A DNA stretch of 32,351 nucleotides from Methanofollis sp. (lineage in GTDB: Archaea > Halobacteriota > Methanomicrobia > Methanomicrobiales > Methanofollaceae). The notes under the pieces were generated by a model. That model was not told where the DNA came from and made no database searches. It saw only the letters and a list, made by a program, of their open reading frames with translations. Shown one piece after another: positions 4,866 to 32,351 of this stretch. The DNA lies in assembly GCF_028702905.1 (NCBI RefSeq), contig NZ_JAQVNX010000018.1, positions 1 to 32,351 of the forward strand. Direction: 5' to 3'. Made by a program: the position numbers and the translations under genes. The first letter of the stretch is position 1. Each line of letters opens with the position of its first letter.

Positions 4866-6854
4866 ATGGCACTCAACGACCGTCCCCCTACCCTCCCGTT
4901 CACAGCCATCATCGGCCAGGACCAGATGAAACTCGCCCTCGTTCTCAATGCCATCAACCCGCGGATCGGCGGCGTGCTGATCCGCGGAGAGAAGGGGACC
5001 GCGAAGTCCACCGCTGTCCGAGCCCTTTCCGGGGTCCTGCCAGGGATCGCCGTCGTGCAAGGGTGCCCCTTCTCCTGCGACCCCGACGACCAGCCCGCCC
5101 TCTGCCCGGCCTGCGCCGCAAAACTCCGCGAGAACGGCGGCCTGGAACGGTCAGAACGCCGGGTCAGGGTCGTCACCCTCCCCCTCGGCGCCACCGAGGA
5201 CCGGGTCGTCGGGACGCTCGACCTCGAACGGGCGATCCGCGAAGGGGTGGCCGCCCTTGAACCCGGCGTGCTCGCCGCCGCACACCGCGGCATCCTCTAC
5301 ATCGACGAGGTCAACCTCCTCGACGACCATATCGTCGACGTCCTCCTGGACGCGGCCGCAATGGGCGTCAACACCGTCGAGCGCGAGGGGATATCCGTCA
5401 CCCACCCTGCCCGCTTCATGCTCGTCGGGACTATGAACCCTGAGGAGGGGGAACTCAGGCCCCAGTTGCTCGACCGCTTCGGCCTGACGGTCTCTGTCGA
5501 GGGCTTCACCGACCCCGATGCCAGGATGGCGGTCATCGCCGCCGCCGAGACCTGGGACAACGATCCCGCGGCGATGGCAGCGTCATGCGCCGCAGCGCAG
5601 GACGACCTCAGGTCGGCGATCACCCGGGCCAGGGCGCTCCTGCCCGGCGTCACGATCGACGACCGCCTCGTCCGCATGGTCGTCGAAGCCTGCATCTCCC
5701 TCGGCATCACCACCCACCGCGCCGAGATCACCGTCGTCAGGGCGGCCCGGACGATCGCGGCCTTCCGGGGGCGGAACACCGTCCTCCCGGCCGACGTCCG
5801 CGAGGCGATGGCCCTCGCCCTCCCCCACCGGATGCGGAGAAAACCCTTTGAAGAGCCAGGGATCGACCAGCAGGCCCTCGACGACCTGGTGCCCGACACC
5901 GAAGACCAGACACCCCAGGACAGCCGCGACGATACCGGCGACGGAGGGGACGAGGGCGACTCCGCCCCGCCCGACGACGGCAGGACAGAGACCAGAGGGA
6001 TCGGCGCCCCGGTCGCAACAGACCCGATCTGGAAGGAGACTCCCTCCGACCGGACCCTCAGGAAAACCGCACGCGGCCGACGGATTGCCACCCCGACAGA
6101 GGACCCCCGGGGCCGACGGACCACCATCACCACGACAGACACCTGGCGCGACATCGCCCTCGACGCCACCCTCCGGGCGGCCGCACCCGCACAGCGGTCC
6201 AGAAAGCCCGGCCCCGGCCTCGCCGTCACCGTCCTCCCCGAAGACCTGCGAAAGGCAGGCCGGACAGGCAAGGCAGAGGTCGCCTGCGTCTTCGTCGTCG
6301 ATGCAAGCGGCTCCATGGGTACTGAAAAAAGGATGGAGTGCGCCAAGGGCGCCGTCTTCTCTCTCCTGGAAGATGCGTACGTCCACCGGGACCGCGTCGG
6401 CCTCGTCGCCTTCAGGGGGACAGGCGCAGACCTTGTCCTCCCCCTCTCCAGAAGCGTCGACCTCGCGTACCGCCGCCTCGCAGAAATACCGACAGGCGGC
6501 CGGACCCCCCTTGCGGCAGGCCTTGCAAAAGGGATGGACGTCCTCCAGAGAGAGCAGAGGAAACGCCGCGAGGTGGTCCCCCTGATGATGCTCATCTCAG
6601 ACGGCCGGGCAAACAGCGGGACAGGCCCGGTCAGGGAGGAACTCGCCCGCGTCTCCGGCGAGATCGCAGACGCCGGCATCAGGACCGTTGTCATCGACAC
6701 CGAGGCGGCGGAGGGCGGCCGAACTCTCTCCCTCGGCTACTGCCGCGAGGTCGCGGAGATGTGCGGCGGGCGGTACTATGCCCTCTCAGACCTCTCCACC
6801 GGAGAGATCGAGACGATCGCCCGTTACGAGGGCGGGAGAGTCTTCGGGGCGTGA
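4866..6854 (+). CDS. Fused AAA+/VWA metal-chelatase motor subunit (ChlI-ChlD / cobaltochelatase-subunit type)
   Basis: A 662-residue protein combining the ATPase (ChlI/BchI-like) and VWA (ChlD/BchD-like) subunits of a metal chelatase. It is expected to drive CobN-type insertion of Co or another divalent metal into a tetrapyrrole. Visible parts are Walker [10 protein letters not shown] (41-49), a four-Cys insertion (C67, C71, C80, C83) that could bind Zn or Fe, Walker B ILYIDEVN (143-150), and an arginine-finger region around LLDRFGL. A charged Pro/Asp-rich linker (about 345-400) follows, then a VWA domain with MIDAS residues DASGS (from 479), TGGRTPL and SDGRANS. It converges with the minus-strand permease gene, with a 9-base gap. 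The partner is very probably the CobN-like protein at 8556-12215. No strong Shine-Dalgarno precedes the ATG at 4866. The metal specificity cannot be read from sequence. Confidence 0.88.
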
Positions 6855-6863
6855 CGCCCCCAC

Positions 6864-7592
6864 TCACACCGTCGCCTTCCTGAACGTCGTCACCGAGACC
6901 GCGAGCACGACCACGGCCCCGAGACCGAGCAGGAGAAGGGTCGCCGCCGGGAAGATCCCTGCTTGAAACGCACGTATGGCGTCGATCGCATAGGAGACGG
7001 GGTTGAGGTGCGCAAGCACCGCAAGCCATCCGGGCATCACCTCGTAGGGCATCAGGGCACTGCTCGTAAAGAAGAGCGGCATCGAGACGACCGCATTGAA
7101 GGCGGCATAGGAGTCGTGGTCTTCGAGGACGAGCGCCACGGTCGTCGTACACGACGAGAGGAGGATGCCGAAGAGGAAGAGGACCCCGTACATCTCGATC
7201 AGCAGCACGGGGTCGAGGAGATGCGCCCCGAGAGCGAGCGCAATGACAAGGATCACCGTGGACTGGAGGAGGCCTCTGAGCGTGATGAAGAGGATCTTGC
7301 CGGCAAGGATGCTCTCGCGCGGTGCGGGCATCGCCAGGAACTTCGGGAGAAAGCCAAGGACCTTGTCGAACATCAGCAGAGACCCCCCCTGCATCGAGGT
7401 GCCGAGCATGGTGAGCACCAGGATGCCGGGCGTGATGAAGTCCAGGTAGTTGTCGGTGAAATTTGTCGGCAATGCAAGCCCGACAAAGATCAGCCAGGCC
7501 GCCGGCATCACCAGGGCCGAGACAACCGAGGTCCGCCCGCGGACCCAGCGGCGAAAGTCCCTCTCCAGGTACGTGAAAGTTCGCCTCATCAT
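6864..7592 (-). CDS. ABC-2 type transporter permease (DrrB-like)
   Basis: A 242-residue polytopic membrane protein of the ABC-2 family. A charged N-terminus (RTFTYLERDFRRWVRGR) leads into about six hydrophobic segments, near residues 23-42, 53-75, 95-120, 125-155, 165-185 and 215-235. It overlaps the upstream ATPase gene by ATGA (start 7592, stop of the ATPase at 7589), so the two are translationally coupled. As the last gene of the cobN operon it may move a tetrapyrrole, corrinoid or metal chelate. That role is inferred only from position, since DrrAB-type transporters are often annotated as drug or lipid exporters. Substrate is unknown. Confidence 0.85.
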   Translation of the reverse strand: MMRRTFTYLERDFRRWVRGRTSVVSALVMPAAWLIFVGLALPTNFTDNYLDFITPGILVLTMLGTSMQGGSLLMFDKVLGFLPKFLAMPAPRESILAGKILFITLRGLLQSTVILVIALALGAHLLDPVLLIEMYGVLFLFGILLSSCTTTVALVLEDHDSYAAFNAVVSMPLFFTSSALMPYEVMPGWLAVLAHLNPVSYAIDAIRAFQAGIFPAATLLLLGLGAVVVLAVSVTTFRKATV

Positions 7593-8548
7593 CGCCTCCG
7601 CAGCATCGTCCTGAAACTATGGAAATCAAACGCGGCCGTCTCTTCCTGGGGCCCGACAAGCGCGAGGAACACATCGTCCAGGGTCGGTTGCCGGATCGAG
7701 ATCGAACTGACCTGCATCCCGGCGGAGGTGAGAGCACGGGCAAGTGCGATCCCGGCTTCTTCGCCGCATTCGGCTTTGAACCTCAATTCATCGCCTTCAC
7801 GCCTGAGAAACAGGGCGCCCTCGACTGTCTCCCCGGCGTACTCCCCGGAGGCGCGGATCGTCACGATATCGCTGCAGAGGTGGGCCTTCAGCGCCGTCGG
7901 CGTATCAGCCGCCGCCACGGCGCCGTGGTCGATGATCGCCACCCGGTCGCAGGCATGGTCTGCCTCGTCCATATAGTGGGTCGTCACGAAGACCGTCATC
8001 CCCCGGTTCTTCAGTGTGGTGATATGCTCCCAGATCTTCCGCCTTGCCGCCACGTCCAGACCGATCGTCGGTTCGTCCAGGAAGAGCACCTCGGGGTCGT
8101 GCACAAGCGCCTGCGCCAGTTCGAGTCGCCGCCGCATCCCGCCGGAGTATGTCCTGACGAGATCGTCGGCCCGGTCCGAGAGGTCCATCAGGGCGATCGC
8201 TTCGTCAGAGGTCTCGTGGGGGCGATCGATCCCGTAGAGTTTTGCAAAAAAAACAACGTTCTCCCGGCCCGTGAGTTTCGGGTCGAGCGCCATGTCCTGC
8301 GGGACATAGCTGATCCGCTCGCGGACCCGTTCGGGGTTCCGGGTCACGGAATACCCGCATATCCTCGCATCCCCGGCCGTGGGCTTGAGAAGCGTCGTCA
8401 GCATCTTCACCGTCGTCGTCTTCCCCGACCCGTTCGGCCCGAGGAGGCCGAAGATCTCGGTGCCGATATCGAGGTTCAGCCCATCCACGGCCCTGAGATC
8501 CCCGAAGGTCCGGGTCAGATTCTCTGTTTCGATCACTGCCATTGTCAT
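7589..8548 (-). CDS. ABC transporter ATP-binding protein (DrrA-like)
   Basis: A 319-residue ABC ATPase that would power the downstream permease at the cytoplasmic face. It has Walker A GPNGSGKTT (37-45), a Q-loop near YVPQDM (81-86), signature TYSGGMRRR (133-141), Walker B VLFLDEP (154-160) and the H-loop histidine in TTHYMDEA. A C-terminal beta-rich extension of about 80 residues matches the DrrA-type tail. It starts 7 bases after the cobN stop. ATG at 8548 abuts the AGGG, while a second ATG at 8542 has better spacing, so the true start may be two codons later. The tight spacing makes it part of the cobN operon. Confidence 0.88.
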   Translation of the reverse strand: MTMAVIETENLTRTFGDLRAVDGLNLDIGTEIFGLLGPNGSGKTTTVKMLTTLLKPTAGDARICGYSVTRNPERVRERISYVPQDMALDPKLTGRENVVFFAKLYGIDRPHETSDEAIALMDLSDRADDLVRTYSGGMRRRLELAQALVHDPEVLFLDEPTIGLDVAARRKIWEHITTLKNRGMTVFVTTHYMDEADHACDRVAIIDHGAVAAADTPTALKAHLCSDIVTIRASGEYAGETVEGALFLRREGDELRFKAECGEEAGIALARALTSAGMQVSSISIRQPTLDDVFLALVGPQEETAAFDFHSFRTMLRRR

Positions 8549-8555
8549 CCCTGTA

Positions 8556-11500
8556 CTACGTCCTGTCGCGCCGCCGTGCCGCCCTGATCTCGTCGAGGTT
8601 TGCGATGGTCACGCCGCCGCCCTGCACCGGGCCGTCGGCGCCGTCGAGTCGGTCTTCGAGCCACCCCTCCGTCTCCAGATAGGCGTCCCTGAGGCATTCG
8701 GCCACCTCGGGGTCCGGACTCCAGAGGCCCCTGCCCTGCGCCTCAAGAAGCCTGCGGCCGATCTCTTCGAGAGCAAAGGGGTTGTTCTCCTGGAAAAAGG
8801 ACCTGTTCTCCGGATCGAGGACGAAGGTCCGTGCGATCGCATCGAAGATCCGATCGTCCACCTCGCCGGTTGCGGCTTCCCAGCCGTAGACCCTTCCCAC
8901 CCTCTTTGCAATGTCGCCGGCGCCCTTGTAGCCGTGCCTCTTCATCCCCTCGATCCAGGCCGGGTTGATCAGTTTGGTCCTGACCACCCGGCCGAGTTCG
9001 GCGGCGAGGGTCCTGACCTCCACCTGCGAGGGCCTCCTCGTGTCGCCGTAGTACGCGGGGACGCGCTTCCCCGAGAGGGACCGTGCCGCGGCTGTCATGC
9101 CGCCGTGCGTCCCGAAGTAGCAGCAGCACCCGCAGAGGTCGTACTCGTCGGTCGCCGTCTTGTTGAAGGTCGCGTCCACGCCTGCAAGGAGGCCGGAGAA
9201 GGCATCGCGTTCATCGCGGCCGGGGTTGTCCCTGCCATAGGCATAGCCGTTCCATTCGATAAAAATTCCGGCAAGGTCCTTCTCTTCCTTCCAGGCCGAC
9301 GAGTAGACCGCAAGGCTCACGCCGTTGCCGTAGGTGCCAGGCCTGCTGGAGAAGATACGCGCCGTCGTGCCCGTCTTCAGGGCGCCGGCACGGATCGGGT
9401 TCATCTCCTCGGGTTCGTCGAGGGCGGCGACCGCCGCGATCGCATCGTCGAGCAGTTCGATGCAGGTGAAAAAACAGTCCCTGAGGATCCCGCTCGCCCG
9501 CACCGTGATATCGACCCGCGGCCGGCCGAGTTCTTCGAGGGGGATCACCCGGAAAGAGACGACTTTTCCGCCCCGCCAGACAGGTTCGACCCCGATGAGG
9601 GCGAGCATCTGGGCGAGTTCCTCGCCGTCGGCCCACATCAGGTCCGACGACATCCAGTACATCGCGATCGAGCGCGGATCCTCCCCGTGCTCCTTGCGAT
9701 GTCCGGCGATCAGCGCATCGGCGAGTCTCCTCCCGACGGCCCATGCGGCACGGGTGGGGACCGAAGCGGGGTCGAGGGAGTAGAAGTTCCGCCCTGTCGG
9801 GAGGACCTCGGGGTGGCCGCGGGTGATCAGGCCCGCGGGGCCGGGTTCGACGAAGCCGCCGTCCAGGGCGTGGAGGAGGCTCTCGATCTCGCCGGAGGCG
9901 TCGATCGCCGCGGCCATGCTCAGGGCCTGCTCTGCCAGGGTTGCGACTGCGTCGGCAGTGCCGGGAAGAGGGGGCCTGCCGCAGGCGTCTTCGACCGCCG
10001 TCCGGGCGTCGGCACCCCGCAGGACGGCATCGACGAACGCGGCCTCAGCCTCGTCACGCGTCCCGACCGCCGCCGGGTTATCGTCGGGGCCGAAGAGGGC
10101 CGAGCCGAGGGCGTCGTCGAACCTGAGCGCCGCCTGGATGAACCTGACGCGGTCGGTCCCTTCGGGGCGGGAGCCGAAGATGTGCATGCCGTCCGGGATC
10201 CGGGAGGACGCCACCTTTGCAAGTTCCTGGTGTGTCCTGGCGACGAAGGCCGGGAAGTCCTGCCGACTCGCCTGCAGTCCGGCGAGATCTGTTTCTTCTT
10301 CCAGTCCGGCCTCGTGGACGGCATCGAGGATCTGGTGCTCCAGGGCATGGGCGCGGGCAGGGTCACTCTCCCGGGCGCGGCCGTACTCGTCGAGTAATGC
10401 CTCCAGGTCCTTGAGTGCGCCATAGAGGCCGGCGGCCTGCATCACGGTCTGCATATGGTCGACGAGCGTCGCGTGGGCCCGGCGTTTGGCGATCGTCCCC
10501 TCGGGAGGGTTGTCGGCATTGTAGATGTAGAGGTGCGGGACCGTCCCGATCGCGATGTCGGGGAAACAGCGGCCTGACAGTGCGACAGATTTTCCAGGCA
10601 GGAACTCAAGGTTGCCGTGCGTCCCCACATGGATGATCGCGTCGGCGCCAAAGACCCGTTCCAGCCAGCGATAGGTCGCCAGGTACTGGTGGGTGGGCGG
10701 GGTCTCCGGGTCGTGGAGGATCCGGCAGACGGTCCCGTCGCACTTCGCCCCGGCGCACCCCCGCTTCGGCTGGACGCAGACGACGGCGTTCCCGAAGCTG
10801 ACTCCGGTGACGACGATCCGCCCCTCATGGACCATTGCCGGCGGGATACCATCGATCTCTTCGCCGGGCGGCCTGCCCCACGCTGTCTCCATCGTCGACC
10901 TGACCACGGGGTCGAGTTCGGCAAACCATGCCACGTACTCGTCAGGGGCGACCTGCGCGAGCGCCCCGCCCGACCGGACGATGGAACCGACAGAGGTCCA
11001 CCTGAAGTCGCTGATCGCTCGTTTTTCCATGATCAGGTCGATCAATGCTTTCCCGTCGGCCGGGGGATCGACCGCGTAGCCCTTCTCCCTGAGGGCGGCG
11101 AGGATCCGGGCAACGCTTTCGAGGGTGTCGAGGTGGGCGCCGGCACCGACGGTCGCTTCGACTGAAGAGCAGGGGTTGTTATGGAGGATAAAGGCGACCT
11201 TCCTCTGTGCGGCCGGTTTTTCCCGGAGAGAGAGCCAGGCCTCGACGCGGCGACAGATCCTCTCGATCCGCTCGGGAATCGGGTCGTGCATCCCGGCATC
11301 GGATTCCTCCGTCCCGGCAGGAAGCATCTCGATCATCCCTTCGAACTCGGGGAGCGCGATCGACCACCCGACCTCGGCGGCAGGAAGGCCGAGAGAGGAG
11401 GCAAGCCATTCCTCCTGGCTCCGGTGGTAGAGAAGCACCGGATGGGCGACAGGGCAGTCGATCTGCCGGGGAAGAGCGCCCGCCGCATCTGCGGTCGGGG

Positions 11501-12215
11501 CATGGAAGACGGGCTGGAGGTTCAGGACAAAGTCCGTCCCGTCCGCGAACCATTCCGCAGCCACCTCGGCGCCGGGCCGTGCACCGAGTTCCCGGTCGCC
11601 CATGGAAAGACAGAAGATCGGGATCACGTCGGCGAAGATCTCGATCCGCCGGACAAGGGCGTCCACGACCCCGCGATCCCCGTTCGCCCAGTAGGTCCGG
11701 GAAAAGACGATCCCGACAGAGCAGGGATGGCGCCTCGGCCGCCAGGCGCGGAAGGACGAGACGTCGGCGAAGGGATCGGGGGCGTCAGGGTGATAGATCC
11801 CTTCCCAGGGGAGAGAGCTCGGGGGTTCGGGTTCGTCGCCGGACCCGTCCGCGACCGCCCGGAGGTACCGCACCATGAGCCTGAAATTTTCGATGCCGCC
11901 GTGGACGACATATGCCGAAACAGCAGCGGCGACCGTGAGGGGGACGGTCGAGAGCGTCCAGAACGCCTCGTCGTGCCCGAAGGAGACGACCGGGATATCG
12001 GTGCGTATCTGCGGGATCAGGTCGTCCCAGGCCCGGTCACGGGACGGGTGGAGGAGGACCAGGTCGGCGTCGGCCTGATCGGCAAGGAACCGGCCCCGTG
12101 CCGCGGGATCGTCGACTTCATGGGTGCCGGTGACGGCGCAGGACACCCCTTCTTCCGCGGCGGCGGCCCTGAGGAGCACGGCGTCGCTCCCCCAGACAAT
12201 CGCGACGATCTTCAT
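8556..12215 (-). CDS. cobN: CobN/Mg-chelatase large-subunit (ChlH-like) protein
   Basis: A 1219-residue protein of the CobN/ChlH family, the porphyrin- or corrin-binding subunit of an ATP-dependent metal chelatase, normally about 1200-1300 residues. Family landmarks include HVGTHGNLEFLPGKSVAL, FGTHGGMTAA, and the C-terminal INPAWIEGMKRHGYKGA segment followed by NPFALEEIGRRLLEA. An unusual cysteine cluster, C1028-G-C-C-C1032, sits just before the FGTHGG motif. The start is placed at 12215 because GGGAGGG lies a few bases upstream there and the protein then begins MKIVAIVWGSD. The ATG overlaps the stop of the preceding 60-codon ORF as ATGA. The AAA+/VWA partner lies just beyond the two ABC genes. 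In methanogens this family is usually assigned to cobalt insertion for B12, but several paralogues occur, so cobalt is likely rather than proven. Confidence 0.88.
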   Translation of the reverse strand: MKIVAIVWGSDAVLLRAAAAEEGVSCAVTGTHEVDDPAARGRFLADQADADLVLLHPSRDRAWDDLIPQIRTDIPVVSFGHDEAFWTLSTVPLTVAAAVSAYVVHGGIENFRLMVRYLRAVADGSGDEPEPPSSLPWEGIYHPDAPDPFADVSSFRAWRPRRHPCSVGIVFSRTYWANGDRGVVDALVRRIEIFADVIPIFCLSMGDRELGARPGAEVAAEWFADGTDFVLNLQPVFHAPTADAAGALPRQIDCPVAHPVLLYHRSQEEWLASSLGLPAAEVGWSIALPEFEGMIEMLPAGTEESDAGMHDPIPERIERICRRVEAWLSLREKPAAQRKVAFILHNNPCSSVEATVGAGAHLDTLESVARILAALREKGYAVDPPADGKALIDLIMEKRAISDFRWTSVGSIVRSGGALAQVAPDEYVAWFAELDPVVRSTMETAWGRPPGEEIDGIPPAMVHEGRIVVTGVSFGNAVVCVQPKRGCAGAKCDGTVCRILHDPETPPTHQYLATYRWLERVFGADAIIHVGTHGNLEFLPGKSVALSGRCFPDIAIGTVPHLYIYNADNPPEGTIAKRRAHATLVDHMQTVMQAAGLYGALKDLEALLDEYGRARESDPARAHALEHQILDAVHEAGLEEETDLAGLQASRQDFPAFVARTHQELAKVASSRIPDGMHIFGSRPEGTDRVRFIQAALRFDDALGSALFGPDDNPAAVGTRDEAEAAFVDAVLRGADARTAVEDACGRPPLPGTADAVATLAEQALSMAAAIDASGEIESLLHALDGGFVEPGPAGLITRGHPEVLPTGRNFYSLDPASVPTRAAWAVGRRLADALIAGHRKEHGEDPRSIAMYWMSSDLMWADGEELAQMLALIGVEPVWRGGKVVSFRVIPLEELGRPRVDITVRASGILRDCFFTCIELLDDAIAAVAALDEPEEMNPIRAGALKTGTTARIFSSRPGTYGNGVSLAVYSSAWKEEKDLAGIFIEWNGYAYGRDNPGRDERDAFSGLLAGVDATFNKTATDEYDLCGCCCYFGTHGGMTAAARSLSGKRVPAYYGDTRRPSQVEVRTLAAELGRVVRTKLINPAWIEGMKRHGYKGAGDIAKRVGRVYGWEAATGEVDDRIFDAIARTFVLDPENRSFFQENNPFALEEIGRRLLEAQGRGLWSPDPEVAECLRDAYLETEGWLEDRLDGADGPVQGGGVTIANLDEIRAARRRDRT

Positions 12216-12394
12216 GCCGTCCCTCCCACAACCGGAAGGCCAGCACAACCCGCATCGCAGGAGACCTCGACGTCGTACATCTCCTCCGGCCGATAGCGAA
12301 AGAGGACCGGCAGCCGAAAGCCGGTCGGAATGCGATCGATTCCATTGCCGGGGCGGATGGCAAGAACAGGGGCAATGAAGCGCGGGCCGTTCAT
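12212..12394 (-). CDS. Small protein (60 aa) translationally coupled to cobN
   Basis: ATG at 12394 opens 60 codons that end in TGA overlapping the cobN ATG (ATGA), the usual sign of coupled archaeal genes. Codon choice is like that of the neighbouring GC-rich genes. The peptide starts MNGPRFIAPVLAIRPG and ends CDAGCAGLPVVGG, with a Cys-x3-Cys pair near the C-terminus that could touch a metal. It is not hydrophobic enough for a membrane helix. The start has no Shine-Dalgarno but a TATA-like stretch lies about 30 bases upstream, which would suit a leaderless transcript. No family is recognised. It could be a chelatase accessory peptide or a leader ORF that sets cobN translation. Confidence 0.5.
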   Translation of the reverse strand: MNGPRFIAPVLAIRPGNGIDRIPTGFRLPVLFRYRPEEMYDVEVSCDAGCAGLPVVGGTA

Positions 12395-23500: not shown

Positions 23501-26500
23501 CTATTTCCGACATTTCCGGAGGATCTCATGCGTTCTGTTTGCCGAGAGGTTGACCTGCAACGAACCGTGACGAATAACAGGCTTAAGGTACGCTAACGCT
23601 AGTCCCCCCCACATCTCTCCCTGTGACGGACCCTCTGCCTCAACGATTCTGCCAGGGATAAAATCGAGGTCCACCCAATGGACATAGGGGGATTTCTCCC
23701 AGCGTACGTCCAGCATCCCCCTACGACACTCAGGATTAAAACTATCGTGCATAACGACAAAAAGAGGTTTTTTAGGGACATAAGAGAGTACAGACTCAAT
23801 ATCCTGTTTTATACCCTCAGCGGAGTGATCACCGTCAATAAGAAGAAAATCAACAGGAATTTGCTCACGATCCAGCTCTTTCAATAAGAGCGGCAGAACA
23901 ATTTGCGAGGGGCCGGTAAAGAAACCGACATTTTTAAACTTTCCAAACCTTTCCGGAATAGTCGGGTCAATATCTATGGAGAATACCGTATGCGAATACT
24001 GTGATATCAAGGACAGGCTTCCACCCATATAGGTCCCTACCTCTATACTACAACGGGGTTTATGCCGGGAGAGCAGAGCAGTCAGGGCCAGCCTTTCAGA
24101 ATGGTTCATTTGCCAGTGTTCGCATAAACAGTCGGGGTAAAGGATATCTTCCCAGTTTTGGGGACCTATCGGCGCTACAGACTCAGGATACGATAGAGAT
24201 GGGCATGTGTTTGCAGACTTCGACACAAGAATTGATAGCAGTTCAAGGATATAATCATCCCATGATTTTATTTTCCGTGTCACAGCGTATCGAGAGAGTT
24301 TAAGGAACAACTCCTTATCAGTGCTCAGGCGATATATCGTATCAGATAGGGCATTTTCATCGGTTACATCTGTCGTCAGGCATCCGCCATCCCCGGCAAG
24401 TTCTGCCATAACCCCTTTATTATAGCAAATACAGGGTTTTCCATGCCAGAGACTTTCAAGGATCGGCATTCCAAATCCCTCGATGACAGAGGGATAAACC
24501 GTGAATGATGATCTTTCATAGAGAGTGTGCAGCGTGGCGTCATCGACAACCCCCTGCCAGTTGATACGAGGGTTATCCAGAGAGATCGACTGTATGTACT
24601 CCGCAATATCGAATGCTCCTGCATATCGATTGCCTACAAGGGTGAGATTCCAGTCGAGATCGGGATACTTCTCCTGCAGTAAAAGACATGCTTGAATGAG
24701 TTTTTTATGATTTTTTCGAGGTTCCAATGTCGAGACACAGAGTATGTCGATAGATTTCGTTTCAAATTCGGGGATTTTTCGTGTTCGAGGTGCTCCTCCA
24801 AATTCCCCGGGAAGCAGATTCGGCATGACGTCACAGCCTTCGATAGTATTATCCTTCCAGAATTCCCTCAGGCATTGGGAAGAATAATACGAAATAGGAA
24901 TCACGACGTCACATTCAGAAATGCCGGTCATATAGTGGCGATGATTCGTCCGGGTGACCGGGTCGGTACAGAAATCCGGGCATAAGACGGGAATAGCGTC
25001 ATAAAATAGTGCCGCCAGCCTGATGCCTTTATTTCGTGCGTATCGGCGGGCGGTGCGTGCTGAGGTCTCGGCGACAGTTTCGGTAAACAGAAGCCAGGAC
25101 GTACCGCCCGGCAATGGAAGATATTCATCAAGCGTGATACTCTGATCATCCGGAGAGAGTCTGCTTTCATCTTTGAGGAGAGGCCCGTTAAATTCTGCCA
25201 ACTGCCTGAATTCGGATCTTTTCGGTAGAATATAGCAATCAGATTCCGGATCCCATACAACAAAAACAGGATCCAGATATCCCTGAAGTTCTTTACACAT
25301 TCGTCGAGTAACGCGAATGACACCCGAATTCGCAGGGTCTCTGACAGCGTTTGTTACATCCACAATTATAGTAAGAGATTTTGCCTCGCGTCCTGCACCA
25401 TCTGCCATGAGATCCCTTATAACCTCATCGTACTCCTCAATAGTACGATTCCACCGGAAAAGTGTGCGGAATCTCTCGAACAATAACTCTCGTCTGGAAA
25501 CTTCAATGTCATGGCCGTTCAGGATCTCACCGGCTTTGACAACCATGTCGGTATTGTCCGTACAGAGGTACCACGGATCAAGAATCACCTCTGGATGCGC
25601 CCCGATATGAAACGCAAGAACCGGACGACCAGACCACTGCATCTCCACGATCGGGAGATTGAATCCTTCCCACAGGGACGGGCTAATGCCCAAATCAACC
25701 AGAGTCATTACTTTTTTTAACTCCGAATCATCGGGAAAACCGATAGGGATTATTGATCTCTGGAGATCAGGAGGTATCTCCACAGCATGAGGATCAGCGA
25801 GGATAAGCAATGTGCATTCAGGGGCGCCATCCCGGATTTGGCGCATTATATCAAACATCGCCTCAGAATTTTTGTAGCAATGAGGCTCCCATCGACCCAG
25901 AGATAAAATGAGTTTTTTTCCCTGAGACCTTAAAGAATCGACTATATCTGTTGCATACCCCGGCGACTCTTCCAGAAGAAGTTCTTTCGAGCCCCAGACC
26001 GGTAAATCAAGATGATCCGCACCCAATAATATCGTTTGAACAGGAACGTCACCATTCGTGTCTATCTTTGACTGAGATTGAACGATATAGTCACTAATGC
26101 CTATGACCAGCGAAGTCTCCGGGAGGAAACGTTTCCGTAAACCACGTAATTTCTCCTGGACTGCCAGAGCACCCCCTGTAAAGCCATCGAGGGGTACCGC
26201 ACCGCAATCCATGAATATGACTTTCAGCCCGTTTCTTCTAAAAAAAGGGATAGATGCAAAAAATGGCCAGCCTCCAATAAGAACAATATCGGGCGTCGAT
26301 TTGTTCTCAAAGTGTTTGGCAAAAGTTTCCTCGATCCATCCGGCGGTATTTTCATTCGAATTCAAATAATCATTTGCGAAATCGGGAACTTCTATAATCC
26401 GAGAAGCAAAACTTTCCAGAACATGACTATCATACTTCTTTGCCGTAACCATAACGGAAATAGTATGTCCACGATTTTTCAAACCCTTCCCCAGTATGAT

Positions 26501-26560
26501 GAATGTTCTGTCGACCCCAAAACGAAATAAAAATCGCTCATTACATATCAGTATATGCAT
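23501..26560 (-). CDS. Trifunctional GT4-GT4-methyltransferase fusion protein
   Basis: A 1019-residue protein with three catalytic units. Unit 1 (about 1-390) is GT-B with LILSLGRWEP and the E-x7-E motif E298/E306 (LWEGFNLPIVEMQ). Unit 2 (about 396-778) is a second GT4, with GVIRVTRRM near its N-terminus, LCVSTLEPRKNHKKL and E694/E702 (VIEGFGMPILESL). Unit 3 (about 800-990) is a class I methyltransferase of the CmcI/Methyltransf_24 type, with IEVGTYMGGSLSLI (839-852) and LLIDGDHSAEG (907-917). ATG 26560 is chosen because GGGGAG lies 9 bases upstream and the fold starts MHILICNERF. The frame upstream to 26620 is non-conserved. It could add two sugars in sequence and methylate one, a compact assembly or capping unit. 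It lies in the AT-richer cassette. Confidence 0.85.
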   Translation of the reverse strand: MHILICNERFLFRFGVDRTFIILGKGLKNRGHTISVMVTAKKYDSHVLESFASRIIEVPDFANDYLNSNENTAGWIEETFAKHFENKSTPDIVLIGGWPFFASIPFFRRNGLKVIFMDCGAVPLDGFTGGALAVQEKLRGLRKRFLPETSLVIGISDYIVQSQSKIDTNGDVPVQTILLGADHLDLPVWGSKELLLEESPGYATDIVDSLRSQGKKLILSLGRWEPHCYKNSEAMFDIMRQIRDGAPECTLLILADPHAVEIPPDLQRSIIPIGFPDDSELKKVMTLVDLGISPSLWEGFNLPIVEMQWSGRPVLAFHIGAHPEVILDPWYLCTDNTDMVVKAGEILNGHDIEVSRRELLFERFRTLFRWNRTIEEYDEVIRDLMADGAGREAKSLTIIVDVTNAVRDPANSGVIRVTRRMCKELQGYLDPVFVVWDPESDCYILPKRSEFRQLAEFNGPLLKDESRLSPDDQSITLDEYLPLPGGTSWLLFTETVAETSARTARRYARNKGIRLAALFYDAIPVLCPDFCTDPVTRTNHRHYMTGISECDVVIPISYYSSQCLREFWKDNTIEGCDVMPNLLPGEFGGAPRTRKIPEFETKSIDILCVSTLEPRKNHKKLIQACLLLQEKYPDLDWNLTLVGNRYAGAFDIAEYIQSISLDNPRINWQGVVDDATLHTLYERSSFTVYPSVIEGFGMPILESLWHGKPCICYNKGVMAELAGDGGCLTTDVTDENALSDTIYRLSTDKELFLKLSRYAVTRKIKSWDDYILELLSILVSKSANTCPSLSYPESVAPIGPQNWEDILYPDCLCEHWQMNHSERLALTALLSRHKPRCSIEVGTYMGGSLSLISQYSHTVFSIDIDPTIPERFGKFKNVGFFTGPSQIVLPLLLKELDREQIPVDFLLIDGDHSAEGIKQDIESVLSYVPKKPLFVVMHDSFNPECRRGMLDVRWEKSPYVHWVDLDFIPGRIVEAEGPSQGEMWGGLALAYLKPVIRHGSLQVNLSANRTHEILRKCRK

Positions 26561-26681
26561 AACCTTCCGCTCCCCTTCGCAAAGCGAATATGCAGTAACA
26601 CCTGCCATATTTCGGCACACATTTTTTCGTTCTATTTAGGTTGCCACTTCGTCATTTGAGTACGAATTCATTATGTGGAAA
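26561..26681 (-). promoter_or_regulatory. Intergenic gap with possible promoter of the trifunctional gene
   Basis: A 121-base AT-rich gap. CCTAAATAG-type sequence on the minus strand (around 26634-26642) and GAAATATGG nearer the gene are TATA-like. Either could let the cassette genes be transcribed separately from the exporter genes upstream. No hairpin was seen. Confidence 0.25.
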
Positions 26682-28244
26682 TTATTTTTTTCCTATCACC
26701 GCGTAGTCCTGAGCCCCGTACAGGATCCCGTTCAGTCTATCAATAGTATGATTATAAGACTCAAAGAAAGCCTTATTTTCGTCATTTGCACCGTCCAGAT
26801 TGGGAAAAATGTGCAGCCTCCATTCCTCAGGTACCGGCGAGGAGAACTGTGTTTCGATCTCCCTGAATCCGGCAACCCCGAAGAGAAACGTCATGGTTTC
26901 AGGGTGGACAGGCCGCACGTGGCTCATGTCGATATAGAAGTTGGCCAGTGAAACAAATGAGAGGGGATTCACCGTTTCGGCGACGAGGTAATACCCGTAC
27001 TGGAGTTTCATACAGCAGAGTTCAAGGAGACGGACGAGGTAGGCAGGTTCAAGGTGCTCGACGACCTGGTCGATGAAGATGCCGTCGAGGCTCCGGTCTT
27101 CGAGGTTTTCGAGATATGATATCGCGTCGACTTTTTCGACGTCCAGCCCCTTCGACCTGCAGAAATGCACCATCGTATCATCGATGTCGACACCCCGGGC
27201 ACCGACCCCGTGCTCCTGTGCCAGTTCAAGGAACTCCCCCCTGCCGCAACCGATGTCCAGGACATTCTTGCGGCCCTCAAAATAGGGGATGAAGGACGCC
27301 TGCCGCTCCTTGATCTCCTGCCGTGAGCCGCGGAAACGTTCCTCGAAGACGAAGTAGTTCAGGCCGGCCCCATCAGGACTTTCAGAGGCCCCGGAGATGC
27401 CTGCACCCTCTCTGGAGGCATTCGAGATCGAGATCCGCTGCTCAAGGACGCGGGCAAGACCGGCCCTGTCCCTGATGTCGGCATCCATCTCGGCGAGCCT
27501 CTCCCGGACTTTTTCTTCGATGAGGGATTCCATCTCGATCTTCATCCGGGCGACGGCATCGTTGACAGAAGAGATCTCGGACCTGATCTCCTCATCCTCA
27601 CGCCGCAGACACTCCTGCATGACCGCCTTGATATCGCTCTTCATTCCCGCAACAATTTTCCGCACCTCGGTCCCGGTCTGCCTCTGGACAGAGGAGATCT
27701 CGTCCCGGAGTTCGACTTCGGTCTGCTGGATCTGGCCTCCGACCTCACCCCGGACCTCGGCCCGGACCTGGTTGAGGACGTCGAGAACCTGCCCTGTGAC
27801 ACCATCCCTCACCGTCTTGATAAATGCACCGTCCGGGTTCAACCGGGATTCCAGGCCTGCAAGCCGCACATTCACGTCATTGAAGACCCGGACGGCACTC
27901 CCATTGAACTCGCTCTGCCTCCAGAACACCGGTTCCACGTACCGCCGCACCTCCCCGTGGACGAGTTCCCGCCCCTTCACCAGGAATTTTCCCGTAAATG
28001 GCCGGTGCGAACTGATGAAGTAACCGGTGTTCTGGATGTTCCAGTTGTCGGAGAGATATACAATATCCCGGGCGACTTCAGATTCTTTCTCTCCCCCCGC
28101 CTGACTTTGAGGGAATGCGGCAGAGACTGGTTCAGGTGGGTAAAGCCCTGCTTCCTTCCGCCGCCTGATGGTCTCCCGGATTCTCTCCATGATCTTTTCG
28201 ACGTCGATCTCGCCGTCGCGGATCTCAAAGGTGTTCTCGTCCAT
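26682..28244 (-). CDS. Coiled-coil methyltransferase, WbdD-like role in glycan chain termination/length control
   Basis: A 520-residue protein in three parts. The N-terminus holds the short amphipathic helix EIDVEKIMERIRETIRRRKE (12-31), found in many O-antigen-locus methyltransferases. A long charged heptad-like coiled coil spans about 150-272. A C-terminal class I methyltransferase has VLDIGCGRGEFLEL (328-341), GVDIDD (351-356) and IDQVVEHLEP (391-400). In E. coli WbdD a methyltransferase caps the chain and a coiled coil measures it; here the order is reversed. It sits directly after Wzt and Wzm, as terminators do in ABC-dependent O-antigen systems. ATG 28253 overlaps the Wzt stop as ATGA, but GGAG is better spaced for ATG 28244, used here. 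No kinase domain is present. AT-richness rises in the last 40 codons. Confidence 0.82.
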   Translation of the reverse strand: MDENTFEIRDGEIDVEKIMERIRETIRRRKEAGLYPPEPVSAAFPQSQAGGEKESEVARDIVYLSDNWNIQNTGYFISSHRPFTGKFLVKGRELVHGEVRRYVEPVFWRQSEFNGSAVRVFNDVNVRLAGLESRLNPDGAFIKTVRDGVTGQVLDVLNQVRAEVRGEVGGQIQQTEVELRDEISSVQRQTGTEVRKIVAGMKSDIKAVMQECLRREDEEIRSEISSVNDAVARMKIEMESLIEEKVRERLAEMDADIRDRAGLARVLEQRISISNASREGAGISGASESPDGAGLNYFVFEERFRGSRQEIKERQASFIPYFEGRKNVLDIGCGRGEFLELAQEHGVGARGVDIDDTMVHFCRSKGLDVEKVDAISYLENLEDRSLDGIFIDQVVEHLEPAYLVRLLELCCMKLQYGYYLVAETVNPLSFVSLANFYIDMSHVRPVHPETMTFLFGVAGFREIETQFSSPVPEEWRLHIFPNLDGANDENKAFFESYNHTIDRLNGILYGAQDYAVIGKK

Positions 28245-28249
28245 CTCTC

Positions 28250-29446
28250 TCATCTCCGCCAGATACAGGGGATATCGACGATCCCGGCATCACGTCCTGT
28301 AGGGATGACATCGAAGGCATATTCCCGGTCATGCCAGTCATAGGGCTGCTGGTTGTGGGTGTGCACCGCAACCGTCAGGAAAAACTTCCCGGCAAGCATC
28401 GGCACTTTCTCGACCTGGAGATCGATATATCCTTTTCCCTCCAGGCACCCGATAGAGACGTCCTTCAGTTCGGTATTGGTCCCGTACAGGTACGCCCCCT
28501 GTTCTGAATAGAGCGCGATCCCGAAGACAGGGTCGGGTATCCGCTCATGGGCGTCGTAGAAGATCCTGACGGTCATGGGGTCGAAGGAGTTGAACCGGAC
28601 ACCCTCGCTGCCGAATTTGTCCAGGAATGTCACGCCGGTGATCTCGACCTTTTTATTCCCCCGGCGGCCCTCGGGTTCCTCAACCTGTGCGGCCTCTTCC
28701 ACCTCTGCAGGTCCCTCCTCTCTCCGCCCATAGACATACCTGTCGATCACCTCGTCCGTCTCGCCGAGGGCGACCTGTTCGCCGTGGTTCAGGAGGAGGG
28801 TCCGGTCGCAGAACCTGCGGACAGACCCCAGGTCGTGGGAGACGAAGACGATCGTCACCCCCTCCTTCCGGTACCTGTTCAGCACGTCCAGGCACTTCTG
28901 CTGGAACTCCATGTCGCCGACCGCGAGCACCTCGTCCATCAGGAGGACCTCGGGGTCGGTCTGGATCGCGGTCGAAAAGGCGAGGCGGACCTGCATCCCC
29001 GAGGAAAAGTTCTTGAGTCTGGTGTCCCGGAACCGTTCGAGCCCGGCAAAGTCCAGAATGTCGTCGATCCGCCCCTCGATCTCCCGCTTCGAGAGGCCCA
29101 TGATCGTGGCATAAGTCCTGATGTTCTCCACCGCGGTGAAGTCGGGGTTGAAGCCGACGCCGAGTTCAAGGAAGGGCGTCACCTTCCTGTGCACGCGAAC
29201 CGCCCCCCGCGTCGGCCGCATGATCCGGGCGAGGAGTTTGAGGAGTGTGCTCTTCCCGCTCCCGTTCTCGCCGATGATCCCGAACATCTCCCCTTCCTCC
29301 ACGGAGAAAGAGACGTCCTTCAATGCCGGGAAGGTCTCGTACTGCGTGGGCCGCAGGAGACCGGTCAGGGCCTCGAAGACCGTCGTCCTCTTCTCGTGCG
29401 GGATGCGAAAGACTTTCTCCACATGATCGACGTCGATGACTCCCAT
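28250..29446 (-). CDS. wzt: Polysaccharide ABC exporter ATPase with C-terminal glycan-binding-type domain
   Basis: A 398-residue Wzt-like ATPase powering glycan export from the cytoplasmic face. It has Walker A GENGSGKST (59-67), the Wzt/TagH marker FLELGVGFNPDFTAVENI (92-109), signature NFSSGMQVR (146-154), Walker B VLLMDEVLAVGD (167-178) and H-loop His204. After an acidic, Glu/Pro-rich linker (about 243-265) comes a beta-rich domain of about 130 residues like Wzt-C, which in bacteria recognises the capped end of the O-antigen. The start codon overlaps the last base of the permease stop, so the pair is coupled. The presence of Wzt-C together with the downstream methyltransferase supports recognition of a methylated terminus. 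Confidence 0.9.
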   Translation of the reverse strand: MGVIDVDHVEKVFRIPHEKRTTVFEALTGLLRPTQYETFPALKDVSFSVEEGEMFGIIGENGSGKSTLLKLLARIMRPTRGAVRVHRKVTPFLELGVGFNPDFTAVENIRTYATIMGLSKREIEGRIDDILDFAGLERFRDTRLKNFSSGMQVRLAFSTAIQTDPEVLLMDEVLAVGDMEFQQKCLDVLNRYRKEGVTIVFVSHDLGSVRRFCDRTLLLNHGEQVALGETDEVIDRYVYGRREEGPAEVEEAAQVEEPEGRRGNKKVEITGVTFLDKFGSEGVRFNSFDPMTVRIFYDAHERIPDPVFGIALYSEQGAYLYGTNTELKDVSIGCLEGKGYIDLQVEKVPMLAGKFFLTVAVHTHNQQPYDWHDREYAFDVIPTGRDAGIVDIPCIWRR

Positions 29447-30228
29447 TACATCTCCTCCGCAAAGCGCGGTTCATAATGTGCAAAGATAAGGTACCCCACA
29501 AGGAGGGCGATGGCGGCCATAACCCCTGCATAGAGCAGGGACCCCGGTATCGCGGGGGTGGAATAGATGATCGTGTCCCGTGCGGCCGTGATGATATGGG
29601 CCATGGGGTTGAGGAGGAAGATCTTCTGCAGGGTCTCGTCGAAGATGGTGATCGGGTAGAGGATCGGCGTCGCAAAGAACCCGGCCTGGAGGATCACCGC
29701 CCAGATGAACTGGACGTCGCGGTAAAAGACGTTGAGGGCGGCAAGAGCGAGGGAAAGGCCCATGGACAGGAGGAAGAGGAGTGCGATGATCAGGGGCACG
29801 TAGACGAGGTTTGCCGAGAGGGGGACCCGGAAATATGCCATGAAGATGACGAAGATCACGGACTCGAAGACGCTCATCAGGAGTGCGGTGATGCAGGACG
29901 AGATCACCAGGATGTCCCGTGGGAAGTAGATCTTCTGGACCATGCTCGGCTTCCCCAGGACCGCGTTGAGGCCCATCGAGGTCGCCCGGGAGAGGAAGTT
30001 CCAGAGGATGATGCCGAGGAGGAGGAAGAGCTGGTAGTACTCCACCTGGATCCGCATCAGGTTCGAGAAGACGACGTACAGGACGATGAGCATCAGCAGG
30101 GGTTCGAGGAGTGACCAGAAGTACCCGAGGACGGAGTTCTTGTACCTCTGCTTGAACTCTCCCCACGCAAGGGTCCAGATGAGGTTCCTGTACCCGTACA
30201 ATTCCTTGAAATGACTAAACACCATCAT
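29446..30228 (-). CDS. wzm: Polysaccharide ABC exporter permease
   Basis: A 260-residue ABC-2 family permease of the Wzm/TagG type with six likely membrane helices. The start [40 protein letters not shown] matches the family's N-terminal interface helix and first helix (written here in two conserved parts: [20 protein letters not shown] and [13 protein letters not shown]). It forms the channel for lipid-linked glycan with the Wzt protein encoded one base downstream. Its start lies 14 bases inside the end of the upstream GT4 gene. Backbone-like codon use. Confidence 0.9.
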
Positions 30229-31285
30229 TCACCACGGCACGGATCTGGTCTGCGAAACGGGGGAGGGCGAAGACCTCTGCCCGCCCGGAACATGCCTCCC
30301 TGTACTGTTCCGGCTCTTTCGAGACGGCGAGGACGGCGTCGCGGATATTCGCCGCGTCCGCCTCCACGAGCACCCCTGTCTCCGGGGTCACGGTCTCCCG
30401 AAAGCCCCCTTCGTCCACCGCAACGACAGGTTTCCCGCTCGCCATCGCCTCGATAGGGGTGAGGCCGAAGTCCTCGTCCATCGCGGTGCAGACGAGGCCC
30501 CGGCACCGGGAGTAGAGGTCGAGCAGGTCCGCCTCCGGGATCTCGCCCCTGACCTCCACATTCGGCGGGAGATTGGCCTGTATCTTCCTTGCATATCCGG
30601 CAGCGTGATCTCCCGCCGCATACCCGCCGACGATCACCAGTTTTTCCTCCGGCATCCGGCGGAAGGCCTCGATCTGGAGTTCGATCCGCTTCTCAGGGTA
30701 CAGCCTGTTCACCGAGAGCCAGAAGTCCCCGTACTCCCTGCAGGAGAACTTCGCGGTGTCCACCGGCGGGTAGATGAGGTCAGACTCCCGCTGGTGGTAG
30801 GCACGGACCCTTTGCCTGGTCGTCTCCGAGATCGCGACGATGCGGTCGACCTGCCGAACCGACCGCTGGTCCAGCCTGCGGTGAACGCCTGCCCAGAGGC
30901 GGAAGGCCTGCCTGGTCACCGGGTCCTGCCGCCGAAGGAAGGTGTCGTACAGGTCGTAGAAGGCCCGCACCGGAGTATAACAGTACCAGAGGTTCGGGTG
31001 ATGACAGTGCGCCGCATAATGGCTCCAGTTCCCGGTGAAGATAAAAAAATCATAGTCGTCCGAGAGATCACAGGAGGAAAAAGATCGTGTCGCGGAGATC
31101 TGCTTCAAAGGGGGAAATTTTATTGTTTTCCCCAGGCTGATGACAGGGACGGACATGTCCATCTTCTCAACGGCATCGACGTCGGTGGTGATGATGTCGG
31201 CACCGAGCACCTGCGCCAGAGTGACGACGACCTTCTCCCCGCCGCCGATAGCCCCGAAATAGTCATGGAAGATGGCTGTCTTCAT
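30215..31285 (-). CDS. Family 4 glycosyltransferase (WbaZ-like, probably mannosyltransferase)
   Basis: A 356-residue GT-B enzyme beginning [20 protein letters not shown], with the WbaZ-type motif [16 protein letters not shown] and, in the donor half, [18 protein letters not shown] and the E-x7-E motif in [13 protein letters not shown]. It would transfer a sugar, plausibly mannose or a GDP-mannose-derived sugar, to the growing lipid-linked glycan in the cytoplasm. The start overlaps the dehydratase stop as ATGA and the end overlaps the Wzm start, placing it in a single minus-strand operon. The donor guess rests on the adjacent GDP-mannose-dehydratase-like gene. Confidence 0.85.
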
Positions 31286-32351
31286 GCCCGCTTCTTCTCG
31301 TCCATGAAGTAGTTGAGCTGGTCCCGGACGATATCTCCAACACTGTACGTCGAGGCGAAGCCAAGTTTCCGCAACTTCGTGATGTCTGCCATCAGGATCG
31401 GAACCTCGGCAGGCCTGAACCGCGCCCCGTCAAAGGAGATCCTGACCTTCCGGCCGCCGCAGACTGCCGTGATCCCCCGGTCGGCGAGAGTATAGTCGAT
31501 GGACCCTTCGAGGAGCATCCGGTCGACATGTGTCTTGTCAAAGCGGACGCCAAACATCTCTGCCGTGTCCTCTCCGGTCGGGTTGTCCACGGACTTCTCG
31601 CCCCCAAACGTCTCGATCCTATCCACCGGCATCCCTGCCGCCTCAAGACTGAGGAGGATATAGGAGAGGACCGAGGTCGTGCGCATGGAACCCTGGTTGT
31701 AGACTTCACCCGGCTTTCCTTTCCCGGCAAGGAGGCAGTAGCCGTTGATGACATCGCGGACATGGGACCAGTCCCTGAAGGCGTTCACATTGCCGATGGT
31801 GACCTGATCGATCTCGCCGGCAACGAGTTTCGCCACCTGGTTGGTGACGACGGAGGTGACGAACATGATCCCCCGGCCGGCCCCCTCGTGGTTGAAGGCA
31901 CGGGAGACGATGGCCTTTGTGCCGTAGGTGTAGAAGTAGTTCCTCATCAGGTGGTCGCCATAGACCTTGCTCACCGCATAGGGCGACATCGGCCTGAGAG
32001 GGTTCGTCTCCTTGATGGGCACCTCGGGAAGGACAGTCGGCTGCGGGAAGATCGCACCGTACTTCTCCTCTGTCCGTGCGTACTGCTCCTTTGAACTGAA
32101 GACCAGCCCGTATTCCTCGGACGACCCGGCAAAAACAATGGTCGGGTCGCAGTCCTTCTTCCGTATGGCTTCGAGAAGGTTATTGGTGCCGATCGAGTTG
32201 ATCTGCGCCGTTTCGACCGGGTGCGTGAACGAACGCGGGACATAGGACTGGGCGCCAAGGTGGAAGACCACATCGGGATCGGCTATATCGAGGGCGGTGG
32301 CAAGGCCGGAAATATCCTCGAGGTTCCCTTCGATAAAGCGGATCCCACCGG
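31282..32351 (-). CDS. NDP-sugar 4,6-dehydratase, GDP-mannose 4,6-dehydratase-like (5' end outside window)
   Basis: An extended SDR enzyme whose N-terminal Rossmann GxxGxxG lies beyond the window. About 355 codons are present, entering in frame as [16 protein letters not shown]. Catalytic residues are the Ser/Glu of GSSEEYG and the YxxxK of [24 protein letters not shown] and the C-terminal segment are typical of GDP-mannose dehydratases, which make GDP-4-keto-6-deoxymannose for rhamnose, fucose or perosamine. An internal GTG at 32271 is not a start because homology continues upstream of it. It leads the minus-strand operon into GT4, Wzm, Wzt and the terminator methyltransferase, so its product is probably a building block of the exported chain. 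Substrate GDP-mannose is likely but not proven. Confidence 0.82.

What the first reader, a model, noticed from the sequence alone, without database searches (positions are those of the whole stretch)
26682..28244. Archaeal coiled-coil methyltransferase with domain order opposite to WbdD
It sits beside Wzm/Wzt with a Wzt-C domain, as a chain terminator-ruler does in bacterial ABC-dependent O-antigen systems. Here the coiled coil (about 150-272) precedes the methyltransferase (about 320-460), and there is no kinase. This suggests an independently built molecular ruler controlling glycan length in an archaeon.
Basis: partly seen in the sequence, partly recalled or inferred. Interest (0 to 1): 0.6.

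Follow-up and report, generated by a model that had tools for sequence, protein, structure and literature searches.

The report
Reversed coiled-coil glycan-capping methyltransferase in archaea
In this methanogenic archaeon, the gene right after a sugar-chain exporter encodes an enzyme that very probably caps the chain with a methyl group from the tip of a long, length-variable protein rod; its relative in E. coli O8 does the same kind of job with the parts in the opposite order, so the rod-as-ruler idea can be tested on natural variants.

Summary
The gene lies on the minus strand (26682-28253, 523 aa) and overlaps wzt by ATGA. AlphaFold2 predicts an N-terminal helical anchor, one unbroken helix at 143-274 (132 residues, about 198 Å), a flexible linker and a methyltransferase at 300-523. 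There is no kinase. The terminator reading is now better grounded: the methyltransferase belongs to the same family as the protein encoded directly after wzt in E. coli O8 clusters, inferred to be the kinase-less O8 WbdD. All 35 distinct full-length archaeal homologues compared lie downstream of a same-strand Wzt-type gene. Their anchor (124±3 aa) and methyltransferase (228±1.5 aa) hardly vary in length, whereas the spacer (69-185 aa) varies, in several by in-frame tandem repeats. Other methyltransferases occur on the same anchor and spacer. The adjacent Wzt keeps three of four residues of the Aquifex methyl-cap pocket. 'Independently built in an archaeon' is not supported: coil-first relatives follow Wzt in Pseudomonas, a full-length O8-type protein in the usual order occurs in this archaeal phylum, and the tree needs only one change of order. 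Verdict: a reversed-polarity variant of O8-type WbdD. Capping and length control are inferred, not shown.

The parts
26682..28253 (-). Anchor-coil-methyltransferase gene (523 aa), proposed chain terminator
   Evidence: ORF; ATGA overlap with wzt; archaeal homologues
28152..28202 (-). Conserved N-terminal amphipathic helix, residues 18-34
   Evidence: Helix in the model; highest hydrophobic moment in the protein; I16, V18, I21, M22, I25 invariant in nine sequences
27870..28244 (-). Conserved N-terminal anchor domain, residues 4-128 (SSHR..GK.LVKGR.LVHGEVRRY..P..Q.EFN), without Pfam match
   Evidence: Profile built from 43 ORFs; length 124 +/- 3 aa; no Pfam hit there
27432..27827 (-). Single long helix, residues 143-274: the coiled coil / spacer
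   Evidence: AlphaFold2; spacer varies 69-185 aa while flanks do not; tandem repeats in relatives
27357..27431 (-). Flexible linker, residues 275-299
   Evidence: No helix or strand; pLDDT mostly below 50
26685..27356 (-). SAM methyltransferase head, residues 300-523, family of the E. coli O8 terminator
   Evidence: Pfam, Foldseek 3dli, profile match to E. coli O8 protein E=1e-41; GxGRGE and VEH motifs conserved
28250..29446 (-). Wzt, ATPase of the glycan exporter
   Evidence: PF00005 and PF14524; best PDB match Aquifex aeolicus Wzt 8dku, E=1.2e-66
28271..28666 (-). Wzt_C carbohydrate-binding domain
   Evidence: PF14524; Thr346, Ala348 and Trp362 of the Aquifex methyl-cap pocket kept, Leu300 is Ala
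29446..30228 (-). Wzm, permease of the glycan exporter
   Evidence: PF01061, E=2.7e-26
30215..31285 (-). GT4 glycosyltransferase, conserved upstream of wzm in most related loci
   Evidence: PF00534; synteny
31282..32349 (-). GDP-mannose 4,6-dehydratase-like enzyme (cut by the contig end)
   Evidence: PF16363, E=6e-61
23501..26620 (-). 1039-aa protein with two GT4-type modules and a C-terminal Methyltransf_24 domain; candidate polymerase
   Evidence: Pfam; also directly downstream in L025/L040 and L126
21804..23465 (-). GT4 glycosyltransferase, 553 aa
   Evidence: Pfam

Best explanation
The protein is the chain-terminating methyltransferase of an ABC-exported archaeal surface glycan, a reversed-polarity relative of the O8-type WbdD of E. 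coli. The conserved N-terminal domain docks it at the membrane or on the polymerase (inferred). The long helix oligomerises as a coiled coil and holds the methyltransferase about 200 Å away (helix predicted; oligomer and distance inferred). When the growing lipid-linked chain is long enough to reach the head, its terminal sugar is O-methylated and growth stops (inferred from the homologue and the synteny). The Wzt carbohydrate-binding domain then recognises the methyl cap and Wzm/Wzt exports the chain (inferred from kept pocket residues). Because the coil grows and shrinks by in-frame repeat duplication between two constant domains, chain length is expected to follow coil length across species.
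For: Head is homologous to the protein directly after wzt in E. coli O8 clusters; literature: O8 WbdD is a methyl-only terminator (PMC3482155). Gene order matches: wzm-wzt-MTase-large GT in E. coli O8 and here, with ATGA coupling. All 35 full-length archaeal proteins have a same-strand Wzt upstream, 24 within 300 bp. Co-occurrence with Wzt_C in 295 genomes: 32 shared, 4.9 expected, p about 1e-30; 28 of 29 genomes with the anchor part. One 132-residue helix, close to the roughly 200 Å of WbdD O9a (PMC5082667). Spacer CV 0.27 against 0.03 (anchor) and 0.007 (head); coil tandem repeats of 21-180 bp, all multiples of 3. Different MTase heads on the same anchor after Wzt. Methyl-pocket residues in Wzt (PMC9445017).
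Against: No enzyme activity, glycan structure or chain length is known for this organism. The anchor is not shown to bind membrane or polymerase; its amphipathic helix has low mean hydrophobicity. About a third of related loci carry a divergent Wzt lacking the pocket Trp, and one (G408/L124) has a 237-aa Wzt too short for the binding domain. [quoted passage not shown] The identity of the E. coli protein as O8 WbdD is by position and literature; the record says only 'methyltransferase domain-containing protein'.
Confidence: 0.6

Rival explanations
1. It is the terminator, but the coil only oligomerises the enzyme and tethers it to the assembly complex; chain length is set by enzyme ratios or kinetics, and coil length drifts neutrally by repeat slippage.
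For: Coil length and hydrophobic period vary widely among relatives, as a loosely constrained tether would; neutral slippage explains tandem repeats; WsaE cap methylation is chain-length independent in vitro.
Against: For WbdD O9a, coil insertions and truncations shift the modal length (PMC5082667), and in E. coli O8 almost all listed members of the 303 genomes match the same gene length.
Confidence: 0.25
2. It O-methylates internal or side-branch sugars of the exported glycan and does not terminate the chain.
For: Methyltransferase heads are interchangeable; the downstream gene carries a second methyltransferase domain that could be the cap enzyme instead.
Against: Homology and position like the E. 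coli O8 terminator; coupling to wzt; partly kept methyl-cap pocket in Wzt.
Confidence: 0.1

Closest known systems
E. coli O8 WbdD (methyl-only O-antigen terminator; loci L144 9001-10278, L143 2831-4264)
   Same: Same methyltransferase family, coil, position directly after wzm-wzt, followed by a large glycosyltransferase
   Different: Order is methyltransferase-coil-tail; no archaeal-type N-terminal anchor
E. coli O9a / Klebsiella O3 WbdD
   Same: Coiled coil as ruler, terminator next to Wzm/Wzt-CBD (literature)
   Different: Has a kinase and caps with methyl phosphate; no WbdD chain among the 60 best PDB matches of our head profile; head N-terminal
Pseudomonas plasmid protein after Wzt (P0002-P0004)
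   Same: Coil-first order, same head family, overlaps wzt, next to a GT and GDP-mannose dehydratase
   Different: N-terminal part contains a DUF4214-like domain; uncharacterised
Archaeal L122/L123 (same phylum)
   Same: Same head family; Wzm/Wzt in the same region, about 12 kb away
   Different: Usual O8-WbdD order; in L123 head about 11-223, then helix 246-318
Geobacillus WsaE (S-layer glycan)
   Same: wzm-wzt-wsaE order and methyl cap on the terminal rhamnose (PMC2943079)
   Different: Head fused to two rhamnosyltransferase modules; sequence not compared here
3dli, Archaeoglobus fulgidus methyltransferase
   Same: Fold and sequence of the head (48% identity, TM 0.92)
   Different: Only the head is solved; no function given in the PDB title

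Membership tests
O8-type WbdD (methyl-only terminator) | Methyltransferase head of the same family | tested here: met
   Archaeal-only profile against E. coli O8 protein E=1e-41; single sequence 1e-27
O8-type WbdD (methyl-only terminator) | Long coiled coil attached to the head | tested here: met
   Helix 143-274; oligomerisation not tested
O8-type WbdD (methyl-only terminator) | Order head - coil - C-terminal anchor | tested here: not met
   Order is anchor - coil - head
O8-type WbdD (methyl-only terminator) | Gene directly after wzm-wzt with a Wzt CBD, followed by a large glycosyltransferase | tested here: met
   E. coli order
O8-type WbdD (methyl-only terminator) | Methylates the non-reducing end and stops elongation | not testable with these tools
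   Needs enzyme assay or glycan analysis
O8-type WbdD (methyl-only terminator) | Membrane association and polymerase recruitment by the end of the coil away from the head | tested here: inconclusive
   Conserved N-terminal domain and amphipathic helix, no direct test
O9a-type WbdD (kinase-methyltransferase) | Kinase domain | tested here: not met
   No kinase in Pfam or NCBIfam
Wzt with carbohydrate-binding domain for methyl caps | Wzt_C domain | tested here: met
   PF14524 E=1.7e-29
Wzt with carbohydrate-binding domain for methyl caps | Methyl pocket Leu300, Thr346, Ala348, Trp362 (A. aeolicus) | tested here: inconclusive
   Three of four kept; Leu300 is Ala and the trap loop is 3 residues shorter

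The most novel reading that the evidence does not exclude
Methanogens and related archaea use a modular termination system: a conserved N-terminal anchor, a coil whose length is quickly reset by tandem-repeat duplication, and an exchangeable capping enzyme at the C-terminus, with polarity opposite to WbdD. Glycan length would be programmed by repeat number, which makes the ruler model testable on natural variants.
Probability: 0.4. Interest if true: 0.72.

Novelty: new variant of a known kind. Interest (0 to 1): 0.55.

Why it matters
Coiled-coil terminators are described in the papers I could read as a bacterial strategy, with the capping enzyme N-terminal to the coil. A reversed version spread through several archaeal families, with constant ends, exchangeable heads and often repeat-built coils, suggests that only the distance between head and anchor needs to be kept, and offers natural length series (for example 38-60 residue coil differences at 70-88% identity) to test whether coil length sets glycan length.

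Tried and rejected
Single-sequence scan of genome contigs found nothing; the alignment scan worked. Viral and phage collections hold no full relatives. The archaeal anchor found no significant match in plasmids, so anchor homology with Pseudomonas is unproven. Independent archaeal origin: not supported (one change of order). Ordinary MetW or other metabolic methyltransferase: rejected by family scores far below cut-off and by context. Repeat lengths as whole heptads: not supported, since units of 7, 11, 15, 19, 26 and 60 aa occur. L142 was first scored coil-first, but its N-terminus does not look like a coil, so it was left out of the second tree, as were the very diverged L125, L127, L062 and L063. 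The Mann 2019 survey of bacterial terminators and the Kelly 2022 paper on Methanoculleus glycans are not held, so prior mention of this reversed order cannot be excluded.

Full report
Observation. It runs 28253-26682 (523 aa) and its ATG overlaps the wzt stop as ATGA. The upstream genes overlap as well: GDP-mannose dehydratase-like, GT4, wzm, wzt. The window is a whole contig of a 2.4 Mb genome. Relatives place it in the order Methanomicrobiales, in a family other than that of Methanoculleus (inference).

Anatomy. Pfam sees only a SAM-methyltransferase and no kinase. AlphaFold2 with 38 sequences shows an N-terminal set of helices, one continuous helix 143-274, a disordered linker and a confident methyltransferase fold 300-523. 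The best solved relative is 3dli from Archaeoglobus fulgidus. The first 128 residues form a conserved domain without a Pfam match. It includes an amphipathic helix that has the highest hydrophobic moment of the protein, although its mean hydrophobicity is low.

Family and context. Homologues occur in Methanomicrobiales, Methanosarcinaceae, Methanoperedens, Methanotrichaceae and other families of the phylum. The order GT4-wzm-wzt-this gene recurs in most loci. All 35 distinct full-length proteins have a same-strand Wzt upstream, 24 of them within 300 bp. In 295 genomes of the phylum, 38 have the family and 38 have Wzt_C over the cut-off; 32 have both, where 4.9 are expected. Of 29 genomes in which the anchor part matches, 28 have Wzt_C. 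The exception, G408 (L124), has a 237-aa Wzt.

Length variation. In those 35 proteins the anchor is 124 ± 3 aa, the methyltransferase 228 ± 1.5 aa and the spacer 131 ± 36 aa, range 69-185. Several spacers are in-frame tandem repeats at DNA level: 33 bp in L055 and L041, 45 bp in L058 and L052, 78 bp in L130, 57 bp in L135, 21 bp in L067, 180 bp in L026. Close relatives differ by 38 residues (88% identity elsewhere), 55 (73%), 60 (70%) or 87 in two blocks (83-91%). The window's own coil shows no strong repeat.

Exchangeable heads. L030, L128, L129 and L130 carry the same anchor but a different methyltransferase. L030 keeps a fragment of the usual head just downstream. L055, L058, L126 and L131 carry a diverged head. 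L062 and L063 have almost no spacer and an altered head, and lack an adjacent Wzt.

Link to a characterised terminator. A protein search with the Pseudomonas relative hit E. coli plasmids next to wzt of the O8 family. In both records the order is wzm-wzt-methyltransferase-large glycosyltransferase-glycosyltransferase-wbdC. That position, and the statement that O8 WbdD is a simple methyltransferase (PMC3482155), identify it as O8 WbdD (inference). A profile built only from archaeal heads matches it at E=1e-41, and the window protein alone at 1e-27. Its order is head-coil-tail. In E. coli O101/O162 a methyltransferase with a coiled coil is needed for chain methylation, and its loss changes chain length (PMC13168486).

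Is the reversed order an archaeal invention? No. Three Pseudomonas plasmid proteins have coil before head and overlap wzt. L123, from the window's phylum, matches E. coli O8 WbdD from residue 3 to 422 and its model has the head first, then a 73-residue helix (lower confidence). On an unrooted tree of heads the two orders are separated by one change (support 90/90) and the archaeal coil-first proteins form one group (100/99). The direction of the change and the homology of the archaeal and Pseudomonas N-termini are open.

Mechanism. In WbdD O9a the coil holds the catalytic head about 200 Å from the membrane-bound polymerase, and coil insertions or truncations lengthen or shorten chains (PMC5082667). 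In the Klebsiella cases studied the terminator sits at the far end of the coil (PMC11231755). A 132-residue helix is about 198 Å long. With the anchor at the N-terminus the geometry is preserved while the order is reversed. Aquifex Wzt recognises a 3-O-methyl cap (PMC9445017); the window Wzt is closest to that protein in the PDB and keeps Thr346, Ala348 and Trp362 but not Leu300. The nearby GDP-mannose dehydratase would fit a rhamnose or mannose glycan (inference). Shown here: sequence, family, synteny, predicted structure, length variation. Inferred: capping, docking, length control, cap recognition.

Limits. No structure of the oligomer, no glycan data, no activity. Neutral slippage could also produce repeat-built coils, so repeats alone do not prove a ruler. 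Two key papers could not be read. An archaeal surface polysaccharide (Methanoculleus marisnigri) with homologues of another coiled-coil terminator, ORF6 of Klebsiella O7, has already been pointed out (PMC11231755), so archaeal terminators as such are not a first.

Noticed in passing
L143 2831-4264 and L144 9001-10278: Two E. coli O8 alleles of the terminator gene are identical except for a perfect 52-residue duplication of the coiled coil (477 against 425 aa), next to identical Wzm and Wzt accessions. Of 303 E. coli genomes with the gene, 23 of the 25 listed match the short form in one piece over its full length.
   Followed up: partly
L021 against window 28250-30228: In a same-genus genome (G009) the terminator is 78% identical, but Wzm and Wzt are of a distant type, so the exporter pair seems to have been exchanged while the terminator stayed.
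   Followed up: partly
L030 2796-4398: A different methyltransferase has replaced the usual head on the anchor and coil; a fragment of the old head remains just downstream.
   Followed up: partly
L062 4867-6012 and L063 7968-9107: Members with no coil and a degenerate head, without adjacent Wzt: possible loss or change of function.
   Followed up: partly
L049, L051, L069 (6195-9557 and similar): Methanosarcina fusion of about 1,100 aa: an extra N-terminal part with a second methyltransferase-like match precedes the anchor; separate about 600-aa versions sit upstream in L035 and L050.
   Followed up: no
window 23501-26620 (C-terminal part): The downstream two-module glycosyltransferase carries a second methyltransferase domain (Methyltransf_24) near its C-terminus.
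   Followed up: no
window 4866-12248: CobN-like chelatase (1230 aa), a protein with AAA and VWA domains (662 aa) and an ABC ATPase stand together.
   Followed up: no
L124 1094-1807: A Wzt of only 237 aa, too short for the carbohydrate-binding domain, in a cluster that still has the anchor-coil-methyltransferase protein.
   Followed up: no
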